NCBI GenBank assembly: GCA_010015805.1 | Contig: ML978122.1 | Location: 1,956,453-2,020,452, forward strand | Source: Rhizodiscina lignyota | Taxonomy: Eukaryota > Ascomycota > Dothideomycetes > Aulographales > Rhizodiscinaceae | DNA: 64,000 nucleotides | Reading direction: 5' to 3' | Shown here: piece by piece, positions 14,643-63,226 of the stretch | Layout: every line of letters starts with the position of its first letter | Numbering within the stretch: position 1 is the first letter of the stretch | Notes under the pieces: model-generated | The model's database searches: none | What the model was told of the DNA's origin: nothing | What the model saw: the letters and a program-made list of their open reading frames with translations, nothing else | Translations under genes and position numbers: made by a program

Positions 14643-16386
14643 CTAGTAACTCCTCCCAAACATGACCCACTTCTTCGCCACGTCTTTACAATTCGGATTG
14701 GTGCATTTGTCACCCTCCACCAAACCATCCGGCTGCTCGAACGGAATGCACAGACTCTTCGCCCCCATGCTCGGAGCTCGCGCGTCCTCAGCAGCACTAT
14801 CGCCCGCTGTCGTCCTTGCACTCATCGCCTTGATCTCATCCTCGCACTTCTCGCCAAGACAGTGCCTGATCAGACATACATTCTTATTGTTGAGCGTCGG
14901 TACAAAGTCGTCCCACTCGCGAATGATCTTGCGATGGGAAGCATAGGCTTCTGATGCGCGGTTGAAGAGGTCGCTTTGGATCTTGAGGAGGAGTTCGGGG
15001 ACGGCGGTGGCGATGGACTCGAGGGGTAGCGTATCTTTGCCTTCCACGTCACGGCGGGAGAAAGTCGCCACGCCCTTCTCGAGATCTTTAGGTCCGATTT
15101 CAAGACGCAGCGGGACACCTTTGAGTTCCCAGTCGTTGAACTTCCAGCCCGGAGAATAGCCTTCTCGGTTATCGAGCTCGATACGCAGCGGGAGGTCCCA
15201 AGCGGAGCCCTTCTGTAGCGCCTCATAGGCCTTGTTGATTCCGCCATACAGCTTCTCCTTATCCTCATCGGTAGTCTTCGCAGTGACGCCTACAGGAACG
15301 ATGACGACTTGAATGTCTGCTACACGCGGCGGGATGACAAGACCCTTATTGTCGCCGTGAGTGAGGATCATCACGCCGATACTGCGTGTTGTGAGGCCCC
15401 AGCTGTTCTGCTGCACGAAGACCGGGGGTTTCTTCTCGCCACCTTCTCTCGTGGACGGATCCTCGACTGTGATTCCGTACATCTTGCTGAAATGTTGGCC
15501 TAGACAGTGACTGGTACCCGCCTGAATACCTCGACCTGTACTAGCAATGAAGCCTTCGATGGTCGTGGTGTACTCGGCTCCTGGAAACTTCTCGGCCTCG
15601 GTCTTCCGCCCCTTTACCACTGGGACAGCGAGCAACTCTTCGTAAATGCCCGTATACCAATCAAGGATCTGCAGCACTTCTTTGCCAGCCTCCTCGAGCG
15701 TCAGGTGGGCCGTGTGTCCTTCTTGCCAGAGGAACTCGCGTGACCGAATAAACGGCATCGGGTGCTTGAACTCCCAGCGTACGACGTTGTTCCATTGGTT
15801 GAGTTTGAGGGGAAGATCGCGATGTGATTGGATTGATTTGGCGTAGTAACCGTACATAGCTGTTTCCGAGGTCGGACGGACTGCTACCGGCTTCTCGAGG
15901 TCTGACTTGCCGCTGTGTAGTTCCTATATCAGCCAAATTGAAAAGTCACAACGACCAGCGATCATCGTAAACATACCCTTTCGTCACCCACGCAACCTCA
16001 GCTGCAAAACCCTCGATGTGGTCCTTCTCCTTCTGCAGATTATCCTGTGATATAAAAATAGGGAAATAGCAATTCTTCACGCCAATTGTCTGAATCTTCG
16101 CGTCGAACCAACTCTTTATGATCTCCCATATTGAGTACGATGCCGGCAGCAGGATGTAGCATCCCGATACGTCATAGAAATCTATCATCTTTCCCTTTGT
16201 GAGCACCTGCTGATACCACTCGGCCAAATCATCGTCTTTCGCGACATCGATGCCTATGAGTGCAGCGCCCTCTATTTTCTTCTTCGGCGCAGACTTGGCC
16301 TTCGGTTCTTGTGCAGGCTTCTCCTTCTTCTCCTTCTTTTCCTTCTTCGAGCGCTCCGGGATCTTGGCTTTTGCTTCGTCGGCCAT
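14643..16386 (-). CDS. Prolyl-tRNA synthetase, cytosolic
   Basis: Two exons, 16386-15977 and 15912-14643 (intron 64 nt), give 559 residues. The acceptor was set at 15913 because it restores the family sequence WVTKGGKSDLEKP; an AG ten bases earlier leaves the frame wrong. The enzyme charges tRNA-Pro in the cytosol. Class II motif 2 is visible (VVRWEFKHP, SREFLWQEGH), as is motif 3 (SWGLTTRSIGVM with HGD). The eukaryote/archaea-type C-terminus has cysteine pairs (CLGEKC, CTNPNC) and ends in the conserved FGRSY. A Lys/Glu-rich N-terminal tail of about 40 residues precedes the catalytic core. The gene is divergent from CCT1, with 366 bases between the starts. Confidence 0.95.
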
Positions 16387-16752
16387 ATTGGGCAGCTATA
16401 GGGAGCTTTTGGGGGCTTGCGGGGTAGCCTTCCTCGAGACTGAATATATGATAAATGCAATTGCGCTACAAACAATGTTAGTTGAGTGACTCTCAAAGCT
16501 CCTATATATTTTGCGCAAAGATTGACTCACTGTTTGGGGGCTGTGTTAATTTCCAGCTCTTAGTAGAGTCACAGCAGTGAATCTGAGGCGCGGTGCTGGA
16601 GCTCCCCAGTCGGCAAAAATTAATTCCGATCCGGCCAAAAGTTCGCGTCGACGCGACTTTTGGTGAAGAATATCTCAACCTTGGCCGTGCAATACAAACC
16701 CGTGGAAAGCATTCAACTGGTCAAGGCTCCTGAAGAGCAAGGATTACAAACA
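16387..16752. promoter_or_regulatory. Divergent promoter, prolyl-tRNA synthetase and CCT1
   Basis: The 366 bases between two divergent housekeeping starts must hold both promoters. The striking element is a near-perfect palindrome at 16635-16663, listed separately. No other gene fits. Confidence 0.7.
16635..16663. repeat. 29-bp near-perfect palindrome in the divergent promoter
   Basis: Arms CCAAAAGT (16635-16642) and ACTTTTGG (16656-16663) flank a self-complementary 12-mer, CGCGTCGACGCG (16644-16655). One extra T at 16643 is the only break in symmetry. It lies about 90 bases before the CCT1 start and 250 bases before the synthetase start. Two-fold symmetry suggests a dimeric protein site; the factor is unknown. 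Confidence 0.75.
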
Positions 16753-40668: not shown

Positions 40669-41106
40669 AAACCATTGAAATCCGCTGTTAACGTGACTCC
40701 AAGAATCCTAAGTATGGCGACAAGAATGAGGTGGCATCTGCCTTGCAACGGTTCAATGCGAGCTGTGAAATAGTCCATGTGGAAGAGAGGACACTTCGAC
40801 CTTGGTGAAACAGGCAATAAAATGTTGAACTAGACACATCAGAATGAACATACTTGCCTTATCTCAGGCTCCTCGGTGTGAAAAAATGGATACTGGTCGC
40901 GTGCTCTGTACTATTGCCAATCCTGCGTAACATTTTTCGCAAGTCTGCGTCATCGGCGGCCTCCGCCACCAGCCCACTCCTGCAGCCGCGATTCGCTGCG
41001 CCCCATGGCCGGCCTTCAAGTACCCACCTCCAACCCACCTTCAGCATCATTTCCATCGAACAACAGAATACAAACATTCGCTCTCTAGTGCATACTAGTC
41101 GCCAAG
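40669..41106. other. Intergenic, promoter of the Pmp3-family gene
   Basis: About 440 bases. No gene; a pyrimidine-rich and CA-rich stretch precedes the Pmp3-type start. Confidence 0.5.
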
Positions 41107-41734
41107 ATGTGCAGTGGCAGTGACCTGTTTCTCGCCCTCCTCTCCGTCCTCTTTCCCCCCATCGGAGGTAAGTCTTCCCCGCCATATCGCTTCCTAGGCA
41201 GCCTCAATATCACACCATCTCCTCAATTCGAGCGAAGCCTCCCAAGAAAAGAGTCGTACTAATCATTTTCTCATAGTTTGGATCAAGCGAGGCATTTGTA
41301 CAGCCGATTCCCTCATCAACATCGCTCTTTGCTGCCTTGGTTACCTCCCCGGTCTTCTTCATGCCTGGTACATCATTAGTGTGTACCCTGAGCCCGACTA
41401 CACTTCCATCCCGCAAGACCAAGAGGGCCAATACACCGTCTGGTATGTGAGCTCTGGCGGACCGGCGCCGCACGGCCAGCCACAGTATGGCAATCAACAG
41501 CAAGGCGGCAGGACGTATGGAACGCTGCGGACGCCTTCTGGAGGTCAGTTCGTGGGACAGCAGAGCGGCACGACGAATTCGTTCAAGGCACCGAAGCCGC
41601 AACGGCAGAGTGGAGGTGAGAGGCAAGGAGAGCAGGGACAGAATGCGGCGGGCTCAAGCCAGAGGCCGGACGAGACGCCTCCGAGCTATCAGGATGTGAT
41701 TCAGGCGGACAACAAGATTCAGTCTAGTGATTGA
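41107..41734 (+). CDS. Pmp3/RCI2-family membrane protein with long cytosolic tail
   Basis: Exons 41107-41167 and 41277-41734 (intron 109 nt) give 172 residues. The first 60 or so residues match the two-helix Pmp3 proteolipid: LFLALLSVLFPPIGVWIKRG, then INIALCCLGYLPGLLHAWYI. These small proteins tune plasma-membrane potential and salt tolerance. The classic form is about 55 residues; here a hydrophilic tail of over 100 residues rich in Gln, Gly and Ser follows. The tail ends near ETPPSYQDVI, a PPxY motif of the kind bound by WW domains of Rsp5/Nedd4 ubiquitin ligases. Longer-tailed members are known in moulds. The first exon covers only the first helix. Confidence 0.88.
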
Positions 41735-51522: not shown

Positions 51523-54500
51523 CAGTAGCTATGCCATAGCTGCGACACATCGTCCTCCCGGGATGCAATGTCTTTGCTATGATGACCATTAATTAATCTC
51601 ATTAAAAGGTTAGTGTTCCTATATGTCTGAAGTATATCAGGATTAAAGATGTAGTCTTGCTGATTTTGAAGCAGAACTCAGTTACACTGCACTCTTTTGG
51701 GTTTCATCAAGGGTGGCTATTTTTTACCCTCGAGTAGTTCCGCTTCTACTGCTCCACGAGGCCCTCATGATCCACACGACTGTGCCAATCCCTCTTAGGC
51801 GCCATTTTATTCGGGCTTCGAATCGTTTTGTCGTTCACGAGATACCTCTTCGCATGTCATTCTCACTTTGCAAAAAATGGGTGGAGTAATTGTAGTATGA
51901 AGCATTGCAGGCGTATTTGGTTCGAAACCCTGGAAGGGATTCGAACAGGAACTTTACAGCTGGAACTTCTCTTTGGGACTGCACTTCACATCTCATGCCA
52001 TATACCCGCTATCCAGCGGTAGCTTCATGAATTGACAACTTTTTTCTTCTGACGACGTTCCATTACGCTCCTTCCTGAGGCTTTCTTGTTTCACCAGCCA
52101 CCCTCACCGCCTATCACAGCCACTCAGCATCTCTGTTGCCAAATTCAGCCAACCATTTTCATCACATGGCTCATCCATGCGCAATCACGTCTCCAACCAG
52201 ATGGCTGGGACGCTTTGCAATCCTGCCTCGGTGCTCTAACCCCGTCCTATTGTACCTCCAGTGGACAGTTCTGACGAAAGATTCACGACTCGCGTTTACC
52301 CTGTGGTTAAATGACTCGCTACATTGAACTGAGCTCTCCGTATGTATCCGTAGGGCTGTGCAATCGGCGTGTAGGCGCGCCTTTACCTACCTATTCTGTT
52401 GTATATGTTGCTTTACTAATCCAGCAGTAGCGACTGCCTGAGGCTGGAACTTGCAAGAGCCGCGACCCGTGACGGAATTCTCCGCATCTCCTATATGATT
52501 CCAATCATTCCATTGTCCATGGAGAAGGCTTGTTGGAACGCGGAATGGTAAGATTAATTGGCATTTTGTATTTGTGAGCATGACTGTCTCTCCAGGCTGG
52601 CTGCAACTCGACTATTGGGATCATCTGTGACACTGAGTAGTACAGGATTTCTCGCGAGACGCGCGGACGGTGAGCAAACAGGTCCATGTGCTACACCTCC
52701 CTACTCCATATTGCCATCTTTGGGGCGTGTTAGAGTTGCCAATCTCTCCAGAGCCCTATCAGATCCGCGCTCCTTATTCCCCGTCATCGTTCGAGAACTC
52801 GCTGCTTATTGTTTGGCACTTACTTCCCCGGCGCAAAGACCGCGCAACTGTCCCCCCGTGAGTGGTGAGCACTGCGGCAGGGCTGAAGCGTACGCTTTCG
52901 CTATCGCAACTCGCATCACAGCGAAGATCCCTGCGGCCACGGTCTTTTCCCTCGTGGGGACCGACGAGCGGCTGTTTGCATGAGCGCCGCCCATCGCTCG
53001 GGAGGCCTACCGGCCAGGCCCGCCGTCCCCGAAGCCTGGCTCCTGGCCGTGAAAAATGCTTCCGAGAGGCTTGAACGACGTGGCGGCACCCTGTGGGCTG
53101 AGGCTCTGCGGACGCTTGCTTCACGGTGGCGTGGGCTTGCGGGTTTTCTGGAATTTTCATTCTTGATGTGCAGCGCGGGAGAAGGGCAGGATTCAGGGAG
53201 TCCAAGGGGAGCGACGGCTTCTGCTCCTATTCTGATCGCCGTCAGCGGGCGCCATGTCAATTCCCATCAGCCCTGCGATTCATGAAGTTCCTCAGATCAC
53301 GCGAGCGTCATCGCACACGACGTCGAAGGCACGAAGAACTCGGTACTCTGTTGCCGTTTATACGACTCGTTCGGCCAACTTACTCCGTTCTTCACCACGC
53401 GGCCGCCACCTGCGGCTCGTAAGGCAAGACACGGAATCGTGGTTCGATGCATACAAGTCTCCGGCAATTCCAGCGCTTCGTCCTCACAAATCTCTACGGA
53501 TCCTGGGCCTACAAGATCAGATCCCGATTCCCCGTAACGCCTGGCTGCCTCAAACAGTCCCGAGTCTCTGGAGTGCGGCGCTTCGGCTCGCTGACTGGCT
53601 TGCGACGCAATAAAAGCCGGAAGGTTGATGCCTTCAGTCGCACGACGTCGTCGAAGAACCAAGGCCATAGAAGCCTTCGAGAAGCAACGGGAGACGGCCC
53701 GGCTGTCTCAAACGAGGACCCATTCAGGGCACGTCATCATTATTCCCGGAGCTTGGATATTCGTACCCGTGAAAATGGATACCTAATGTGGAACAACCCA
53801 CTCCTCGGGGGTCGGCCCGTTGCGTTGAAGCCCAACTTTGGGGCAGTTGGGCTCCGTTGACGCTGGACTGGAACTGCCAGCTTGTTCGGGACAATCCTCG
53901 AACGGATGGTTCCGAGGAGAGCGAACGTCGGGAATTGGGCGAAGCCATGTGGAGTTTTTGATATGCAACTCAGACGCCCTCACTTCCTCCCTGCAGACGT
54001 TCGTTACGACTCGCCTTCAAGGGATGTATGCATGCGGTCATGTTGGATTCCAGATGTCCTCCCACTTCCCCTGCATTCGGTGCAGAGCTCCCGCTGCAGC
54101 CCACTACATGCGTGGGATGGTGGAAGGCGACTCAGGAGATGAGAGAGGTAGAGGATGAGCTGTGCCAGTCCTTGAGCAATTCTCGAACGGAGCAGAATCT
54201 TTCATCAATGATGTCTCGGTTCAAGTTTGACGGAAGCAGATCAAACCATCAACCATTCAATTCTTGCGAACACGGTTTCTAAGCGGACACTTCGGTTTAG
54301 GATGGCTGGTCAAGCAATATGCACCCTGTATTCTGTTCTGCTTCTCGTTCCCCCGTTGCACAACTCCTGATACTATGCATTGAGCTTTTCTCTCAACTTT
54401 CGATCGTATCTCATTCTTATTCTGGTTCCGATTCAACTGAATCTATGGTTCACACTTGGTCTGTGAAAGTGTTAAGTTTCCTCAAGATCTATTTGTTGTT

Positions 54501-55832
54501 CTGCTACCAGTAGACCAGTTCTGAGTTTATGCTTACCCACGCTCGTCCTCGAATGACGAGATGGAATTTGGTTTCAATATCTTCACCGACATTATGACAT
54601 CTCGCTGTTCTTCTTACTTTATTTGGTTTAGAAGAATTGCAATGCAAAATTGCATAAGGCGTTAACCATAGCTTCGCCGATATGCTAAAGTGTAAGTTGA
54701 AGACTGAACGCTGCATACATCAGTAAAACCTGATGTCCTACAACAAACATTCAGGAACGAAGAGCCTCTCGTGCCTCCGGTTCTCCGATTACCCATCAGT
54801 ATCCCCGACCGGTTCGCTTTGGCTGCTTTTCTGTCTTTCTCTTAATTCTTTCTAGAGTGGTGCTTGAACGACTGGCAGCTCCTCAGGGTTTAAGATAGGC
54901 CAAGTATCTTGAACAAGTTTGAATTAAGTTGACTGAAGTCAAACTATACGCACGGGTGACGGACTTAAGGAGGGGTTATAGTATTGATCACCTGATTGCT
55001 AAGTGGTCAGTTCAGGTTCTATATCACATTCACACGCTAACAATTACCCTATTCCCTTTCTCCCCAAAGTAGTTTAATCGCATGTCAAATAAACAAAATT
55101 TACACATGCCTCCAAGGTTTGATATGCAAAAGACCAGTCGACCTCCCCTTTAACGTACCTTAATAATCATCAATGGAGCGGAATCATCGAAGGGGGTTAA
55201 TTGTTCAATTCAAACTACAATAAACCTTACTCATAACCTGCACCCCGCGCCCAGGGACTCTCAGGGTTATGCTGGTATTGTGCTAGTATGGAGATTTTAT
55301 ACGTTATCGTTGCGTAAGGACTCATATTTGACATCACACCCTCCTTCTTCAGTGCCTTCACTATCTTCGTCTCTTTAAGGTTCTCAGCACTGGTTTCAAC
55401 AGCTCTGGAGCAAACTGAATAACGAACCTTTTTGATGGGTAGACTGGCCTGTTTCTAATTTGAAGACGTCCCCGATCCTGGTCTCGTGAACGGCAATGGA
55501 GCTTCTCATCCAGGACAGCTTGTCATTGTAGAGCTGTATTCTGAGGATGCTATTCTCAGCTACCCACCTATTCGCTCAAAACGCAAATCAGTACCTATTC
55601 GTATTAGTCTTCATCGGCCTCCTACGTACATGCTAAACCTTTCACCCCAGAAAGGACTATGTGGCTGTTGTATGGTCATTGTCCGCCGAAACTGCTCGCC
55701 ATCGATCGTAGCGACTGCGTAAGTGCTGTGAGTGGATCCCCATGCTGTATAAGCGTAAGTGTTCAAGTATTCCTTCTCATAAATGTAAGGCATGGAAGAT
55801 TTTACAGAGTAGCCTGTCCCTTAAATTCCTTC
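51523..55832. other. Gene-free 4.3-kb stretch
   Basis: No supported gene in 4.3 kb, the longest gap in the window. Frames of up to 143 codons occur on both strands and overlap. None shows a domain, a signal peptide or a splice pattern that extends it. A short palindrome at 51920-51946 is listed separately. I saw no transposon ends, long repeats or tRNA-like folds. Degraded genes, long leaders or non-coding RNA are all possible. Confidence 0.5.
51920..51946. repeat. 27-bp palindrome
   Basis: GTTCGAA, A, CCCT is mirrored by AGGG, A, TTCGAAC around the triplet GGA. Only the A opposite A breaks the pairing. It could fold as a hairpin of 11 pairs. Confidence 0.75.
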
Positions 55833-57687
55833 TCATATACAGCGCATCCGCAGCAATGACTGTGCACTGATTAGCCGATCTGCCTCGCAGCACGATCTAT
55901 ACTTCCTAGACTTACTCTGAAGCAAAATTGTGTATTTCTTTCGTGGGGCTGCTTCTTGGGGACGTAGATCCACGGGTTGCGGCGTCCCAGCAATGGACAT
56001 ATCATCAAAGGGCTCAAATGCAGACAAGTTAGTTAAATTAAATTTTGCGTCCCTTGGAGCAACATCTTGATATAATTGCCGAAGGTCAGGCTGGTCAGGT
56101 GAATCTGCTCTCTGCTCTGAGCCATTCGCTGAAGTGGGCCCTCCGTCGCTTGGAGCACGAGATTGATCCAACTGTCCCGGTTTGGGTGGGCCTACTTCTT
56201 GCTCTGGCTTATCAATCGCAATATTAGGGGCCTTGGACTTGGATCGAATAGTGCGCTCCGTATCAGACAGAGAGACGAGGTGAGATGTATCCTCAACCTC
56301 AGGCAGCATTAATTCTTCGATTGCTGACCCGTTAGAATATTCTCTCCATATATTCGATGCCTGTGGCTTACGCGTTATCTGAGACCCATGTCGTCTCTCC
56401 GTATGCTCTCGTGGAATGACTTGAGGCGGGGAGGCGAGGCGAGATGAATCATCGCCTTTCGGCTGCGTTGCTTCTTCGATTGCCGAGCGATTAGAGACAA
56501 TACTCCATATTCCTGAAGCTTCTGGCATTTGCCCTGTGCGAGGCGCGTCCCGTCTTTCCGTATGTTCCTGTAGAATGACTGGAGCGCCGAGCGGTGAATG
56601 AGTTGAGCAGTGTTCTCTGAGCTTAGTGCTAGCCTGTTTCAGCCACGGATGTTGAAGAGCCTCACTTGCTTTCATCCGACGGTTAGCATCTACTGCCATG
56701 AGATTCATGGCGAATTGAACTCCATCGGGTCCAGCAGAGGGAACAAGGCGTCCTGAAGGATATTGATCTACTCCTCGACAGTAATCCCCTAGGGCACGGA
56801 GATTCTTAAAGGTACGCTCACCAGTGAGCATTCGAAAGCCAATCTCTCCCAGAGCCCACATATCAGCCGGCTGATAGTCGTAGGGTTGCGAATCATTAGC
56901 GGGCTGGCCGAAGCCGAGGAGTTCGGGTGCCATAAACTCCAGCGTGCCTTTTACAGTTGATGGTCCACCTCTGTCTGCAGCGCGGTTACTGATGCCAAAG
57001 TCGCCAAGTTTTACCCACCATTCCGCTGGTGGATGTGATCTGATAAGTATATTCTAACCAAATATGGCTGTTAGTCGCTGTGACACGAATATATGGCGTA
57101 AACCTCCTTACTGCAGGCTTCAAATCTCTGTGTGCGAATCCATTCAAATGCATCTCGCGAAGGCCCTCTAGGATTTGACTGGTCAACTCTCGAGCTTCTG
57201 CAGGCGGCAATCTAACGTTGAAGAGGTAGTCATGAAGATCGCCAAAAGGACAGTATTCCATGGCAATATAGATTGCCTCCGCATCGTCATACCAGCCAAA
57301 TGATTTCACGAAGTAGACGTTGTACTAGAATCTGTCAGGTCTCGCAAAAATTGTTGAATCGACACGATGTTGACTCACTTTTGGATGAGCAAACTTTGCG
57401 ACCGCTTCCAACTCTCTGTAAAAATCAATAGCCTTCGGCGAGGTTTGCCGCTTATGGACCATCTTCACTGCGCGCACATGTCCAGTGCTGTTGCCTTCTA
57501 CGCATTTTTCCAGCCAAACACGTCCGTATGATCCTTGTCCAAGATCCTTTTCTCGTTTCCACCGCTCTTCTCGAGATATGCGTCGGCGATTGGTACCCGC
57601 CTCGGTATAGCTGTGGACAGTGTGGTGATCGTTGAAATGTGTGTCGAGTTTCGAATCACGTACAAGATCGGGTATCGGAGGCATCAT
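55833..57687 (-). CDS. Serine/threonine protein kinase with duplicated tail repeat
   Basis: Exons 57687-57379, 57324-57112 and 57053-55833 (introns 54 and 58 nt) give 580 residues. All catalytic motifs are present: GQGSYGRVW, AVKM, EYCPFGDLHDYL, HRDLKPA-NIL (split by intron 2), GDFGIS and MAPELL. The kinase should therefore be active. The catalytic domain covers about residues 45-320. The tail is hydrophilic and contains two copies of a unit starting EHTERR and holding ASxIWxxxSNxSAIEE, 53 residues apart (about 337-382 and 390-435). No membrane segment or known docking domain is seen. The gene is divergent from a HeLo-like/pseudokinase gene, with 458 bases between starts. The second ATG, at 57684, is equally possible as the start. 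Confidence 0.88.
56271..56567 (-). repeat. 159-bp tandem duplication inside the kinase gene
   Basis: The coding stretches at 56567-56430 and 56408-56271 are clearly related at DNA and protein level, with a period of 159 bases (53 codons), so the frame is kept. Shared protein text includes EHTERR and SAIEE. Confidence 0.8.
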
Positions 57688-58145
57688 GCCTACAATTCTT
57701 GTTAGGTTTTGCTCAATATTAATTTAAGATTGGGAAACCTTACCCAGAATGTTAGATTCCCATGTCCTTCGTGGAAAGGTGACCGTAAGGTCCTTCCGTC
57801 AGGGTGAGCCGGCTGTCGAGTTACTCTAATTACCGCGCTGTCGAGTCGCGTGGGTTTCTCTCAAAAGCATGGGAAAGCCTCCAAATTAGTGAAATGGCGA
57901 AGATAGCAAAAAGGTTACGAGAGGGCTAATTGATGAGAAATTTGAGTAGGAATCGGTCTCCGTCGGGGTTGGCCTTTCATGGCAAGGCTGAGGCTGTGAG
58001 GGAGGCAGTTCCGAGGCGCTGTTAGACACCTGCATACTGCAGGCAAACCTGGATCAACGTCTTTAAAATCCTAGCCTTCTGCAGAAGAAAGTATTGACGC
58101 CTACTTTTCTCCTCGTTATGTGCTCCTCAGCTTGAAATTGCCACT
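57688..58145. promoter_or_regulatory. Divergent promoter of the kinase and the HeLo-like gene
   Basis: 458 bases between two divergent starts, able to co-regulate both genes. I recognise no specific factor site. Confidence 0.55.
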
Positions 58146-59858
58146 ATGGCCGGTGTGGATATCGCTCTTGCTCTCCCCGGTGTGGTGGACTTAGCAATAA
58201 AGTAAGTCGGCTTCACTTGCTTCGCCCGTATCGTGTGTCAAACGAAGAGTCACCATCTAATCCCAAACAAATATGGCAAAATCTTGATCCAGACTTGCTC
58301 CGCCTTCAAAAATGCAGACCAGGAGATCTTTGAGCGCGCCATTCGTATCGAAAGCTGCTGGAAGCGAACAAGTGTGCAGTTGGATTCCTTAAGTCGGGTT
58401 TCGAGTGATCTAGATGAAGAACATGAAGCACTACAGAATCAGATTTTAGTTATCCTCAGCTCAAAGCTTAAGGCTGCCGATCTCAAGTTAAATAGTTATC
58501 TCGAGGAAGGACCTTGCCCGAGCCCCGAGAACTCTGCCACATCATCCAAAATGGTGAAGATCAAGAGATTCAAATACGCATTGCTAAAAGAATCCCTGGA
58601 CAAGACCATCTTGGACTTGGAGTCGTGGCAGAAAGAGCTTTTCGATCCATCATGGTTTCTGATCGCGAGAGTTGCAGGACAACTTGTCGATAAAGAGCTG
58701 TCCGGCACGAGCCAAAAGAGTAACGTCATCACAACCGCTTCGGGTGTGCGTGACTCGTTGAGTAAAAGTCCAAGGCAAAACGTCTCTGTATTTTTACCAG
58801 AAGACGGATTAGAGTCGGCCAAAATTGCTCATATACCTTTGAGCTCTGCAAAGTCGGTGCAAAGAGCAGGCTCTACCAAATGGCTCATCCAGGACTCGAT
58901 ATCATGCGAGTCATCCGCAGATTTCTCCCAGCGAAGGAAAGCGATTCGGGATCTGGGAAGAAAATTAAAGGCTGCCGATCCTTCAACTTTTGCACTACTG
59001 AACTTAGTCGGCGTTGTCGCGGAAATTGCGTCGAACGAGTTTAGACTAATTTTCAGAACACCGGATAAGATGGACGACCCGCAATCTCTACGGACTGCTC
59101 TCATATACAAAGACTCGAACCATTCTCTCTCAGATCGATTTCGAATAGCCACGCAGTTAGCAAGAGCAATATGTTCTTTCCATACGTTTGGATTTGTGCA
59201 CAAGAGTATCCGACCGGAGAATATTCTCCTGTTCCAAGACGAAGATTCAATCCTCGGATCCGCATTCCTTCTTGGCTTTGAAAAAATACGTCTAGAGGCA
59301 GGTCAGACGCGACTGACTGGCGATGACGCTTGGGAGAAGAACCTCTATAGACATCCTCAACGACAGGGTGTGAAACTCCAAGAACCCTACGTCATGCAAC
59401 ACGACATTTACAGCCTTGGAGTCTGTCTGCTCGAAATCGGCCTTTGGCAGTCTTTCGTACTGTATGACGATGCATCTTCGAGCCCCAGTGAGGCAGTGGC
59501 TTACAGGTTCGGTGCAAAAGCTACAGACAGAGCAAGCTATGCAGAGTCTGTTAAGGGCAACTTGCTCGGTTTAGCTAGAGAGTCGCTTCCAAGTCGTATG
59601 GGATGCAAGTACGCAAAGATCGTTGAGACCTGTCTGACCTGTTTAGATGAGGGGAGCGATGATTTCGGGGATGAATCGGAATTTCAGGATGAAGACGGCG
59701 TTTTAGTTGCTGTGCGATATATCGAAAAGGTAGGCCACCTTGTGCGTCTCGCGGACAAACAGCTCACGTCTCAAGGTCCTTCTACAGCTTGGCAACATTT
59801 CAGTATGAGAAGACCGAATGCGGAAACCACCAAACTGTCTTGGATGATCAGAGTCTAG
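58146..59858 (+). CDS. HeLo-like N-terminal domain fused to a pseudokinase
   Basis: Exons 58146-58201 and 58250-59858 (intron 48 nt) give 554 residues. The N-terminus MAGVDIALALPGVVDLAI is hydrophobic. About 190 helical residues follow, with family text such as ESCWKRTSVQLDSL and FDPSWFLIARVAG, resembling the HeLo/HeLo-like (HET-S, HELLP) group of membrane-targeting cell-death domains. From about residue 240 it is kinase-like but dead: HKSIRPENIL replaces HRDLKPEN, LGFE replaces DFG, and no glycine loop or clear VAIK lysine is seen. LYRHPQRQG and MQHDIYSLGVCLLEIGLW are conserved in a widespread mould family, as I remember it. HELL domains are held to be homologous to the MLKL four-helix bundle. 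The HeLo assignment is from pattern only. Function in this organism is unknown. Confidence 0.75.
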
Positions 59859-60008: not shown

Positions 60009-62846
60009 TCAGTTCTTGCTTGCAGATGCTGTCCAGCCTGGGCCAAGAACCATACTGACTCTGTCAAGCACACTTCGGCCACCGAGCACTTCAGCAAAGC
60101 GCTTGACCCTCTCTTCCTGACCCATCCTCACAAAGCCTGCAATGCCATATTTTCTCTCGTCATATCCGGTATTTCGATCTTCTGATACGTTGCTCGAGCT
60201 GGCCACTGCGGAGACGGGCGGCTTCAATTCTGTTAACACGACCTGCGCTGCGAATGCATTCATGCCTGTCCGACGCAAGAACTGCTCCCATAATGTCTCA
60301 TCCTGTAACAGCTTCATACTGTCTTGTCCAGGAGTGATTCCATACCGATGCATGGCATTGACCACCCATCTGGCAATTTGATCATCTCCGCCGGGGATAT
60401 AGCAGATCTGGATCTCGGCGTCTAATGCGGCGACAAAGCCTGACAGTTCGGCCACTGCCATACAATCGCGCTCGTCCATGGACGCACTTGTGGTGTTGTC
60501 ACTCACGAAGACAAGCAGACTTTCGAAACGGCGAGAGACTGCAATGATCCGTTCCTTGATGCCACAGTGGTTGTCCTCTTGTCCTGGTAGCGGACGCTGC
60601 TTGATCTTCTGTAATGTGGTAAATAGAAGCCCTGTTGAAGGCGAGAGGATAATGTCGCTTTCATCTATCTGCAGGGAGGAGAAATCGCGTTCGATCAACT
60701 CAGCAGTGGGATATAGAGCGCAAGTGGCACGGTATAGTCCGCGACAGGTTTTCAGAAACGCCGAGGAGACAATGAACGGTCGTGGAGGAAGGCTCGCTGG
60801 AATCTCGGGATGTTCAATACTCATAGTGGTGTTATCCAATAACTCCTTATCGATATCCTGAGCTCTGTTACGCTTCCCAGACGCAGGACGAGTTTGCGGT
60901 TGGTCTATATGACTTGACCTTTCAAGAACTCCATTACTGGGTCCTTCAGATTCCTTGACTGTCTCACCACGACTTCGGAGAAATTTGTCTAGCGCCGCAG
61001 AGGCTGAGAAGGCCCCTCCAAATATCGTGCCAACATCAGGTGCTGAAGATGCCTTGGGTGGCGGTGCATTCCGTTCGGGTTGGTGAGATGGCTTTAAATT
61101 GCTGTCATGCGTTTTGAAGTCGAGTGCTTTTCTCTTAAGCAAATCATCAAATCCCATCTCTTCCTTGTCGACTTCAGCAGGCTCCAAATCTTCATCATCG
61201 TCATCCCATGCGTCGTCTAAAATTCTCAAACCTTCGAGCTTCCAAACTATTGCAGAGCTGTCAAGGACTTCTGAAGCCTCAAACTCTTCCAGAATCTGCT
61301 TCAGCACCGGCCCAACATTGATGCGCTCGTCAAGTTCAACTTTCGACAACTCAATTGGGAAGGGACTCCAAGTCAGTTGGCGCTCGTTTTTGGTCACACC
61401 ATGCCAAGATGGCACGTACGCCATTTCCTGGCTCTTGATATCTTTGAGCAGCTGACGCTGTGCTGCAAGTGCAGACGCTCCACCGCTTCGACGTTCAGCG
61501 ATGCTGAGATATGCCATCCACGGTGGTGTTGGTTTGATGGGAGCAATGGACGGGACACTGACTCTGTTTGTTGAATCTGCCTCAATGAGTTGCTCTTGTT
61601 CCACCTCCTGATTTGCTTGCTCCGCCAGTGGAGCTATCTGGTTGTGCATGAAAGTGTCAAAGTCGCTAGTCGATTCAGGTAAATCTTCCTTTCGAAGAAA
61701 TGCCGAAGGAAGCTCTGGTATGACCTCGTGGAGCATTTCCGGGAACGAGACAGTTTTGCTACGCTTCTGAGGGAGCTCTGTTGGTAATGGTGGAGTCAAC
61801 GGTCCCTCGACTCGTAGATCCGCAAGCTTGCGCTTTAGTGGAGTGAGCGAGTGAGGCTCCGGAGAAGAATCGAGAGAAAAGTATAGTTGTCCCACTTCAG
61901 ATGTGTCAAGGAGTATGGGCTCGCTATCCGCATTCGCCGGGATAGTGGTAAGCAGTAACGAGTCTTCCTGCGCCAGCTGTCGCTCTAATTGCTGGGTTTG
62001 TGCGATGCTCGGGTCGGTGATATCGGATAGAGGTAGCATGCCTTCCTGAGGCGCGGGTATTTCAAACGGAGTGGGTGGAGGAGAAAGTGGTAGGAGCGGA
62101 GGTGTAATAGGACGAGGGACTTTGTGCTGTACAAGATGAGTATCCGATCCATCGATTCGCCAGCATGAGGTTACCTTGCTCGCTTGCAGTTCAATGGCTA
62201 TTAGATTCTCCCTCTCTTCAATTGTGACTGGATCACTAATAGCATTCTGTATGCACAGCAGCACCTCTTTGGCCACTTCCAACTTATCCCGCCTTGCATC
62301 TGCGTCGAGCCGTGCAGGTAAAGCGAGATAACGCGTCGGCCACGTTAGCCCCTCATCTCGTTCCTCGTCTACAACCTCTGGAGGTATTTTAGTGTGCTGG
62401 AAGTCCGGAATGACGCGTCGTCCAAAGTGTTGCATGTCGTATTCGTTATCCGAAAGAAGGAGTGGAAGTTCTTGCTTCAGTTCAGATCTCCTCCGCGGAG
62501 TTTCTAGGCCCATGATAGGATACTCGTCCGGAGCTGAGATTGTTTCTTGAAGAAGCTCTGCTGCTTCTGGCGAAACGGCCAGCTTTTCCTTTGCCAGACT
62601 TTCGAAATGTTGCAACGCACAAACTGCGTCTGGAGAATCAGCGCCGAAATCGCATGTCTCCAGCTCATCTAGATCAAACAGAGCGCATATAAATGGATTT
62701 TCGGATGCGTAGTCAATAGACAGTTTGTTGAATCGAGCATACTCCAGGACTGTTAGTTCCTCCTCTTCGTCCACATCGTCTCGTGCTCGTGACGCGTCGT
62801 CCGGAAAGCGGTCTTCTTCTCCATCATGGCCAGTACTAGTCTTCAT
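60009..62846 (-). CDS. Probable Zip2/SHOC1-family meiotic protein (XPF-like C-terminus)
   Basis: Intronless, 945 residues. The N-terminal 150 residues include acidic stretches and TVLEYARFNKLSIDYA. The middle is Pro/Ser-rich with many acidic patches. The C-terminal 260 residues look like an XPF-type nuclease fold plus helix-hairpin-helix. LLVFVSDN, then DERDCMAVAELSGFVAAL near residue 790, where XPF has GDxERKxxxD, and IQICYIPGGDDQIARWVV are visible. WEQFLRRTGMNAFAAQVVL follows in the position of the helix-hairpin-helix. The degenerate active site fits Zip2/SHOC1, which pairs with Spo16 in the ZMM group that makes crossovers. The assignment is by pattern only; another XPF-like or unnamed fungal family is possible. 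An MCB box lies upstream. Confidence 0.55.
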   Translation of the reverse strand: MKTSTGHDGEEDRFPDDASRARDDVDEEEELTVLEYARFNKLSIDYASENPFICALFDLDELETCDFGADSPDAVCALQHFESLAKEKLAVSPEAAELLQETISAPDEYPIMGLETPRRRSELKQELPLLLSDNEYDMQHFGRRVIPDFQHTKIPPEVVDEERDEGLTWPTRYLALPARLDADARRDKLEVAKEVLLCIQNAISDPVTIEERENLIAIELQASKVTSCWRIDGSDTHLVQHKVPRPITPPLLPLSPPPTPFEIPAPQEGMLPLSDITDPSIAQTQQLERQLAQEDSLLLTTIPANADSEPILLDTSEVGQLYFSLDSSPEPHSLTPLKRKLADLRVEGPLTPPLPTELPQKRSKTVSFPEMLHEVIPELPSAFLRKEDLPESTSDFDTFMHNQIAPLAEQANQEVEQEQLIEADSTNRVSVPSIAPIKPTPPWMAYLSIAERRSGGASALAAQRQLLKDIKSQEMAYVPSWHGVTKNERQLTWSPFPIELSKVELDERINVGPVLKQILEEFEASEVLDSSAIVWKLEGLRILDDAWDDDDEDLEPAEVDKEEMGFDDLLKRKALDFKTHDSNLKPSHQPERNAPPPKASSAPDVGTIFGGAFSASAALDKFLRSRGETVKESEGPSNGVLERSSHIDQPQTRPASGKRNRAQDIDKELLDNTTMSIEHPEIPASLPPRPFIVSSAFLKTCRGLYRATCALYPTAELIERDFSSLQIDESDIILSPSTGLLFTTLQKIKQRPLPGQEDNHCGIKERIIAVSRRFESLLVFVSDNTTSASMDERDCMAVAELSGFVAALDAEIQICYIPGGDDQIARWVVNAMHRYGITPGQDSMKLLQDETLWEQFLRRTGMNAFAAQVVLTELKPPVSAVASSSNVSEDRNTGYDERKYGIAGFVRMGQEERVKRFAEVLGGRSVLDRVSMVLGPGWTASASKN

Positions 62847-63226
62847 AGTGCAATGTTCAGGAATTGAGAATAAAATCAGATGTATAAAGGCAGTGACCTG
62901 CTATATGAGCTGAGCAATGCGACGCGTCGTGAGGTTGTCCGAATAAGGAAGAATGATCACGTGCTTATTCATCCACGTGACCAGGAAGGAGCAGAGAGGT
63001 TTCAATGAAACGAACGCTCGATTCAGTGCAGAAAGTCGAAAGGGTCCAGAAAAAAGGACTTTACTTCCCAGTGTAAGTAAATGTGTGTCTGAGATATAAT
63101 TCAAAATGGGTCACAATATCTAATTAAAAGCAACAACTTGAACGAGTAAACTGCGCCTTGATCGAAGAGAATATTAAGAAGTCGATGAATCAAAGCAAAT
63201 ATAAAGCCAAACCGCAAACCACCGAT
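62847..63226. promoter_or_regulatory. Promoter of the Zip2-like gene, with MCB and two E-boxes
   Basis: 380 bases between two minus-strand genes. ACGCGT (within CGACGCGTCG) is at 62922-62927. CACGTG occurs at 62958-62963 and 62974-62979. All lie 76-133 bases before the Zip2-like start. Confidence 0.6.

What the first reader, a model, noticed from the sequence alone, without database searches (positions are those of the whole stretch)
55833..59858. Divergent kinase and HeLo-like/pseudokinase pair, reminiscent of RIPK3-MLKL
Seen: two genes share a 458-bp divergent promoter. One encodes a kinase with every catalytic motif (AVKM, HRDLKPAN, GDFG). The other encodes a hydrophobic, helical HeLo-like N-terminus fused to a kinase domain with HKSIRPEN and LGFE in place of HRD and DFG. 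Known: fungal HELL domains and the MLKL four-helix bundle are regarded as related, and MLKL is a bundle plus pseudokinase switched on by the kinase RIPK3. Inference: the kinase phosphorylates its neighbour to release a membrane-acting domain in incompatibility or defence.
Basis: partly seen in the sequence, partly recalled or inferred. Interest (0 to 1): 0.75.

Follow-up and report, generated by a model that had tools for sequence, protein, structure and literature searches.

The report
Mould kinase beside a helical pseudokinase
A mould chromosome carries a working-looking protein kinase gene back to back with a gene for a dead kinase that has a helical-looking front end, which resembles a cell-death switch known from animals, but nothing yet shows that the two work together.

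Summary
Gene A (minus, 57687-55833, three exons, 580 aa) is a kinase with every catalytic motif. Gene B (plus, 58146-59858, two exons, 554 aa) has lost the catalytic Asp of HRD (HKSIRPEN) and the DFG Asp (LGFE). The ATGs lie 458 bp apart. B's kinase-like part is weakly closest, within Pfam, to DUF7580 (E 2e-4, below cut-off).

The RIPK3-MLKL reading is only partly supported. B's N-terminus matched no HeLo, PigL_N or MLKL_N profile, and my alignment-free models were too poor to test a four-helix bundle. A's best solved relatives are RAD53, DAPK1 and CHK2; no RIPK is in the 60 rows shown. Similar spacing occurs between unrelated divergent genes in this window. No fungal genomes were held, so co-occurrence could not be tested.

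A 2025 review already notes HELL domains joined to kinase/pseudokinase domains (PMC12881547). B is probably one more such protein; a dedicated activating kinase next door would be new but is unproven. One oddity: B's intron has no AG where its CTAAT motif would put the acceptor.

The parts
57379..57687 (-). Gene A exon 1: start codon, Gly-rich loop GQGSYG, AVKM lysine
57112..57324 (-). Gene A exon 2, up to the catalytic loop HRDLKPA; introns 57325-57378 and 57054-57111 hold CTGAC / CTAAC branch-like motifs
55833..57053 (-). Gene A exon 3: GDFG, MAPE, C-lobe, then a tail of about 260 residues without a Pfam match; stop codon at the low end
56430..56579 (-). Gene A tail, repeat copy 1 (residues 333-382)
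56271..56420 (-). Gene A tail, repeat copy 2 (residues 386-435); local score 114 against a maximum of 52 in 300 shuffles
57688..58145 (.). 458-bp divergent intergenic region; no direct or inverted repeats of 12 nt or more found
58146..58201 (+). Gene B exon 1: hydrophobic N-terminal residues
58202..58249 (+). Gene B intron as read with the nearest in-frame AG; a branch-like CTAAT at 58257 lies beyond this AG
58250..59858 (+). Gene B exon 2 with stop codon
58146..58763 (+). Gene B N-terminal region (residues 1-190, intron included in the span), modelled as helical at low confidence, HeLo-like by pattern only
59091..59642 (+). Gene B pseudokinase region (stretch matched by DUF7580, residues 300-483)
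59199..59222 (+). HKSIRPEN in place of HRDxKxxN (catalytic Asp lost)
59271..59282 (+). LGFE in place of DFG (metal-binding Asp lost)

Best explanation
Gene B is a fungal accessory protein of the class that joins an N-terminal helical domain to a kinase/pseudokinase domain. Its pseudokinase (DUF7580-like) most likely acts as a regulatory switch that holds back a membrane-acting N-terminal helix bundle, so it works like MLKL in self-recognition or defence cell death. Gene A is a separate, catalytically intact CAMK/RAD53-like kinase, perhaps of the patchy filamentous-fungal kind, and its position next to B is more likely incidental than a kinase-substrate partnership. Shown: the two genes, the intact motifs of A, the lost catalytic residues of B, the hydrophobic start of B. 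Inferred: the fungal host, the bundle fold, the membrane action, the brake role, the death outcome.
For: B lacks both catalytic aspartates but keeps another kinase landmark, HDIYSLG. Its best Pfam match is DUF7580, ahead of Pkinase. Its first 18 residues are more hydrophobic than 99.5% of 18-mers in the window's long ORFs, and the exon-2 part of its N-terminus is modelled as helix (low confidence). [quoted passage not shown] A has PF00069 at 3.2e-49 and all motifs, and its best solved relatives are RAD53 (1.4e-32), DAPK1 and CHK2. The A. [quoted passage not shown]
Against: No HeLo, PigL_N or MLKL_N profile match. No usable structure: pLDDT 54 and 41; best Foldseek E 3.0 (2 matches) and 0.29 (50 rows shown of 122), with no kinase and no MLKL among the rows shown. 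Amphipathic periodicity was not significant in 5 of 6 N-terminal segments; the sixth reached p 0.045; neither of 2 control segments was significant. The splice site near the N-terminus is odd. No relative of either protein was found in the collections searched, by a method that finds close relatives only. DUF7580 is named in no paper of the library. B's kinase-like part scores better against bacterial kinase models such as MAD6 (3.2e-10) and MkoA (1.2e-10) than against DUF7580.
Confidence: 0.5

Rival explanations
1. A RIPK3-MLKL-like module: kinase A phosphorylates the pseudokinase of B, releasing its N-terminal bundle to permeabilise membranes; the shared promoter keeps the two in step.
For: Adjacent divergent genes 458 bp apart; active-looking kinase next to pseudokinase; [quoted passage not shown] B's stretch after LGFE holds two threonines.
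Against: A is nearest to CAMK kinases, with no RIPK among the 60 PDB rows shown of 2476 matches. No RHIM-like core in A or B by two patterns. No significant likeness between A's tail and B (local score 44; 29 of 300 shuffles as good). Divergent neighbours of unrelated function at similar spacing occur in the same window: prolyl-tRNA synthetase/chaperonin about 610 bp, multicopper oxidase/phosphoesterase about 787 bp, both measured between first in-frame ATGs of ORFs (names). The clusters that I saw in print pair HeLo/HELL proteins with NLRs and gasdermins with proteases, not HELL proteins with a separate kinase.
Confidence: 0.13
2. B is not a death effector: its helical N-terminus is a coiled-coil or docking domain, and the protein is a pseudokinase scaffold or decoy in ordinary signalling.
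For: No death-domain profile match; amphipathicity not significant in 5 of 6 segments; filamentous-fungal kinases (Ffks) and unclassified Fusarium kinases are poorly understood (PMC3591445 section 22; PMC6001611 passages).
Against: Strongly hydrophobic first 18 residues and the printed precedent of HELL-kinase/pseudokinase proteins.
Confidence: 0.25
3. B in this strain is a degrading or alternatively spliced allele: no AG lies where the CTAAT motif would place the acceptor, and the nearest in-frame AG adds residues near the start of the N-terminal region.
For: CTAAT at 58257-58261 lies downstream of the AG at 58249, and no AG ends between 58249 and 58292. A's two introns have CTGAC / CTAAC 9 and 16 nt before the intron end. 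Of 12 candidate AGs examined, four keep the frame open to the end: 58249, 58354, 58372 and 58393; the last three drop 35, 41 and 48 residues.
Against: The 1.6-kb second exon is fully open, unlike an old pseudogene. A second motif, TTGAT at 58284, also matches the branch pattern, but the AG after it (58292) loses the frame. No RNA data. The junction that I expect rests partly on a family N-terminus that I recall, not on a call.
Confidence: 0.12

Closest known systems
Fungal HELL-domain proteins with kinase/pseudokinase domains (one sentence in PMC12881547, a 2025 review)
   Same: N-terminal domain followed by a kinase-like domain in one protein
   Different: The HELL assignment of B is not confirmed by profile or structure; the passages that I read name no adjacent kinase gene
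MLKL (animal necroptosis executioner)
   Same: Order of parts: helical-looking N-terminus, then a pseudokinase with lost catalytic residues
   Different: No MLKL_N match; MLKL not among the 60 PDB rows shown of 306; activation unknown
HET-S/NWD2, HELLF/FNT1 and HELLP/PNT1 two-gene clusters of Podospora anserina (PMC7885112, passages)
   Same: A possible membrane-acting helical protein encoded beside a possible activator
   Different: The partner here is a kinase, not an NLR; no RHIM/PP-like core by two patterns; no NLR-type domain match in 50 of the 51 other long ORFs of the window
RAD53/CHK2 and DAPK1 kinases (CAMK group; the group name is recalled)
   Same: Best PDB sequence matches of A residues 1-323
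   Different: No FHA match in A by Pfam at E 1; long repeat-bearing tail
DUF7580 (PF24476)
   Same: Best Pfam match of B's C-terminal half
   Different: Below the curated cut-off (21.7 and 23.1 against 27 bits)

Membership tests
HeLo / HeLo-like domain | Match to a HeLo, PigL_N (PF17111) or MLKL_N Pfam profile | tested here: inconclusive
   No match for whole B at E 1 or for its exon-2 N-terminus at E 10. The models exist in the Pfam copy that the genome search uses. No positive control was run, and a single divergent sequence may escape a profile search
HeLo / HeLo-like domain | Four-helix bundle fold | tested here: inconclusive
   All-helical model, pLDDT 54, pTM 0.26, exon 1 not included; Foldseek found nothing useful
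HeLo / HeLo-like domain | Hydrophobic N-terminal segment | tested here: met
   Residues 1-18 GRAVY 1.82; that it is a helix was not tested, since exon 1 was not modelled
MLKL architecture | C-terminal pseudokinase without the HRD and DFG aspartates | tested here: met
   HKSIRPEN and LGFE; weak Pkinase and DUF7580 matches
MLKL architecture | Membrane permeabilisation on activation | not testable with these tools
   Needs expression and liposome or cell assays
RIPK3-MLKL pair | Activating kinase of the RIPK (TKL) family | tested here: not met
   A's 60 best PDB rows (of 2476) are RAD53, DAPK1, CHK2, AMPK, CaMK and others; no RIPK among them
RIPK3-MLKL pair | RHIM-type amyloid core in the kinase | tested here: not met
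   No [IV]Q[IVL]G (pattern recalled) or GxQxG (as in PMC5485727) in A or B
RIPK3-MLKL pair | Conserved adjacency or co-occurrence across species | not testable with these tools
   No genome held for the window; the collections that could be scanned are prokaryotic and viral; no relatives found
Amyloid-signalling NLR/HeLo two-gene cluster | Adjacent NLR gene (NACHT or NB-ARC) | tested here: not met
   No NACHT, NB-ARC or HET match in 50 of the 51 other ORFs of 110 codons or more kept (at E 1e-4, at E 1e-3); shorter exons were not scanned

The most novel reading that the evidence does not exclude
A fungal necroptosis-like module made of a dedicated kinase and a helical-bundle pseudokinase executioner, encoded as a divergent gene pair and controlled by phosphorylation instead of by an NLR and amyloid templating. 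It would have recruited a CAMK-type kinase independently of RIPK3.
Probability: 0.12. Interest if true: 0.78.

Novelty: new member of a known kind. Interest (0 to 1): 0.33.

Why it matters
The fungal HeLo/HELL effectors in the passages that I read are switched on by NLRs through amyloid templating. A fungal executioner switched by a neighbouring kinase would fill the gap between the fungal and the animal arrangement and would bear on whether a pseudokinase brake is ancestral or evolved again. The review that mentions HELL-kinase proteins calls for broader work on HeLo/4HB proteins in fungi (PMC12881547 section 18).

Tried and rejected
Relatives: B's exon 2 in viral contigs (no pattern match) and genome contigs (six pattern matches, no relative), A's third exon in viral contigs (six pattern matches, no relative). 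Two degenerate patterns made from B's own residues gave nine viral loci. tblastn of A and B against all nine gave four weak matches, in L001, L004, L005 and L007 (best E 0.11). Parts of L004, L005 and L007 were translated and read by eye; they look phage-like and show no kinase-like frame, so I took them as chance. The L001 match (E 0.19) was not examined.

PDB sequence search of the N-terminus found only ThreeFoil, with no stretch passing on its own, taken as chance.

Amyloid link: A's tail repeats were compared with B and the link rejected. Of two further patterns, N.G.[GS] had no match and [IV].[IVL]G hit only A's VKLG before DFG.

Bacterial defence kinases: matches to MAD6, MkoA and PD-T4-6 were taken as general kinase likeness and not pursued.

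Literature: nine library searches. In what I read, no passage describes a kinase gene adjacent to a HeLo-pseudokinase gene. Papers seen as passages only: PMC12881547 (plus section 18), PMC10197012, PMC5485727, PMC9815663, PMC7885112, PMC12394161, PMC6001611, PMC3591445 (plus section 22). PMC2838846 was searched for five terms with no match. Daskalov 2016 (HELL/MLKL) is not held and is known to me only through the papers that cite it.
Full report
What is there. Gene A lies on the minus strand with exons 57687-57379, 57324-57112 and 57053-55833 and encodes 580 residues. Gene B lies on the plus strand with exons 58146-58201 and 58250-59858 and encodes 554 residues. Their start codons are 458 bp apart. 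The GT-AG introns of A are 54 and 58 nt with branch-like motifs. I infer a filamentous fungus from the short introns and the gene content; no call names the host. By Pfam the window also holds genes for MCM6, SUV3, a TCP-1 chaperonin, a prolyl-tRNA synthetase and a DUF7102 protein.

Kinase A. Pfam Pkinase matches residues 44-312 at 3.2e-49, and GQGSYG, AVKM, HRDLKPAN, GDFG and MAPE are present. With A residues 1-323 as query, the best PDB sequences are RAD53 (1.4e-32), a calcium-dependent kinase, DAPK1, CHK2 and AMPK; no RIPK is among the 60 rows shown of 2476 matches. The tail holds two copies of a 50-residue repeat, 53 residues apart (local score 114; 300 shuffles reach at most 52; DNA copies of 72 nt at spacing 159). 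The tail shows no significant likeness to B (29 of 300 shuffles as good). Neither protein has a [IV]Q[IVL]G or GxQxG core.

Pseudokinase B. HRD reads HKS and DFG reads GFE within LGFE, so both catalytic aspartates are gone. The kinase-like part is recognised only weakly by Pfam: DUF7580 1.8e-4, Pkinase 2.8e-4, both below their cut-offs. In PDB sequences the best is B-Raf at 1.6e-4, RIPK1 appears at 0.0041, and MLKL is not among the 60 rows shown of 306. Bacterial kinase models score better (MAD6 3.2e-10; MkoA 1.2e-10), which I take as general kinase likeness. The Pfam matches start a third or more of the way into the profiles (from position 87 on), so the N-lobe is very divergent or absent.

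N-terminus of B. The first 18 residues are strongly hydrophobic. No HeLo, PigL_N or MLKL_N profile matches, although the three models exist in the Pfam copy used by the genome search. The exon-2 part was modelled as all-helical at pLDDT 54 and pTM 0.26, which cannot decide the fold; the C-terminal model was worse (pLDDT 41). Of six segments tested for amphipathic periodicity one reached p below 0.05 (0.045); neither control segment did. The HeLo-like label is therefore a pattern judgement. I share it partly because the layout resembles fungal proteins that I recall, which is a lead and not a test.

A splice oddity. After B's donor at 58202 the nearest in-frame AG ends at 58249. Two branch-like motifs follow, CTAAT at 58257 and TTGAT at 58284; no AG ends between 58249 and 58292, and the AG at 58292 loses the frame. 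Three farther AGs (58354, 58372, 58393) keep the frame but drop 35, 41 and 48 residues. Read with 58249, the N-terminus carries about seven more residues than the uninterrupted reading that I would expect from recalled relatives. This may be real, an allele losing function, or a sequence error; RNA data would tell.

Is the pair more than neighbours? In the same window a prolyl-tRNA synthetase and a chaperonin gene diverge over about 610 bp (if the ORF at 15949-16395, which has no Pfam match, is the synthetase's first exon), and a multicopper oxidase and a phosphoesterase over about 787 bp (first in-frame ATGs; names). Spacing of this order is ordinary here. No genome of the host is held, and no relative of A or B was found in the prokaryotic or viral collections scanned, so conservation of the pair was not tested. 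No NLR or HET domain was found in the window: of 55 long ORFs kept, four belong to A and B; 50 of the other 51 were scanned, the one at 40862-41203 was not.

What is in print. [quoted passage not shown] it also mentions kinase-like domains fused to gasdermin-controlling proteases. PMC7885112 (passages) describes HELLP/PNT1 and sister clusters in which the partner is an NLR. PMC9815663 (passages) groups HeLo, HeLo-like, Goodbye and MLKL_NTD folds. PMC3591445 (section 22) describes filamentous-fungal kinases present in some Aspergilli and not others. None of the passages read describes a kinase gene beside a HeLo-pseudokinase gene.

Verdict. A real, intact-looking kinase gene and a real pseudokinase gene stand back to back. 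B is plausibly an MLKL-like fungal protein of a class already mentioned in print. The kinase-executioner partnership is an attractive guess with adjacency as its only evidence, at about 0.13.

Noticed in passing
56271-56579 (minus): The tail of kinase A carries two tandem copies of a 50-residue repeat (conserved EHTERR, P-AS-IW, SN-SAIEE) of unknown role.
   Followed up: partly
58202-58292: Gene B's intron has its CTAAT branch-like motif downstream of the nearest in-frame AG, and no AG where that motif would place an acceptor, near the start of the N-terminal region.
   Followed up: partly
60012-62900 (minus): A 963-codon ORF with DUF7102 and SAM_6 domains, of unknown function.
   Followed up: no
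53858-55832: A stretch of about 2 kb downstream of gene A with no ORF of 110 codons or more in the list; G+C is 45% over 54001-56000.
   Followed up: no
58779-59855 and 55836-57053: Both kinase-like proteins match bacterial defence kinase models (MAD6, PD-T4-6; B also MkoA), B's pseudokinase better than it matches Pfam Pkinase; probably general kinase likeness.
   Followed up: no
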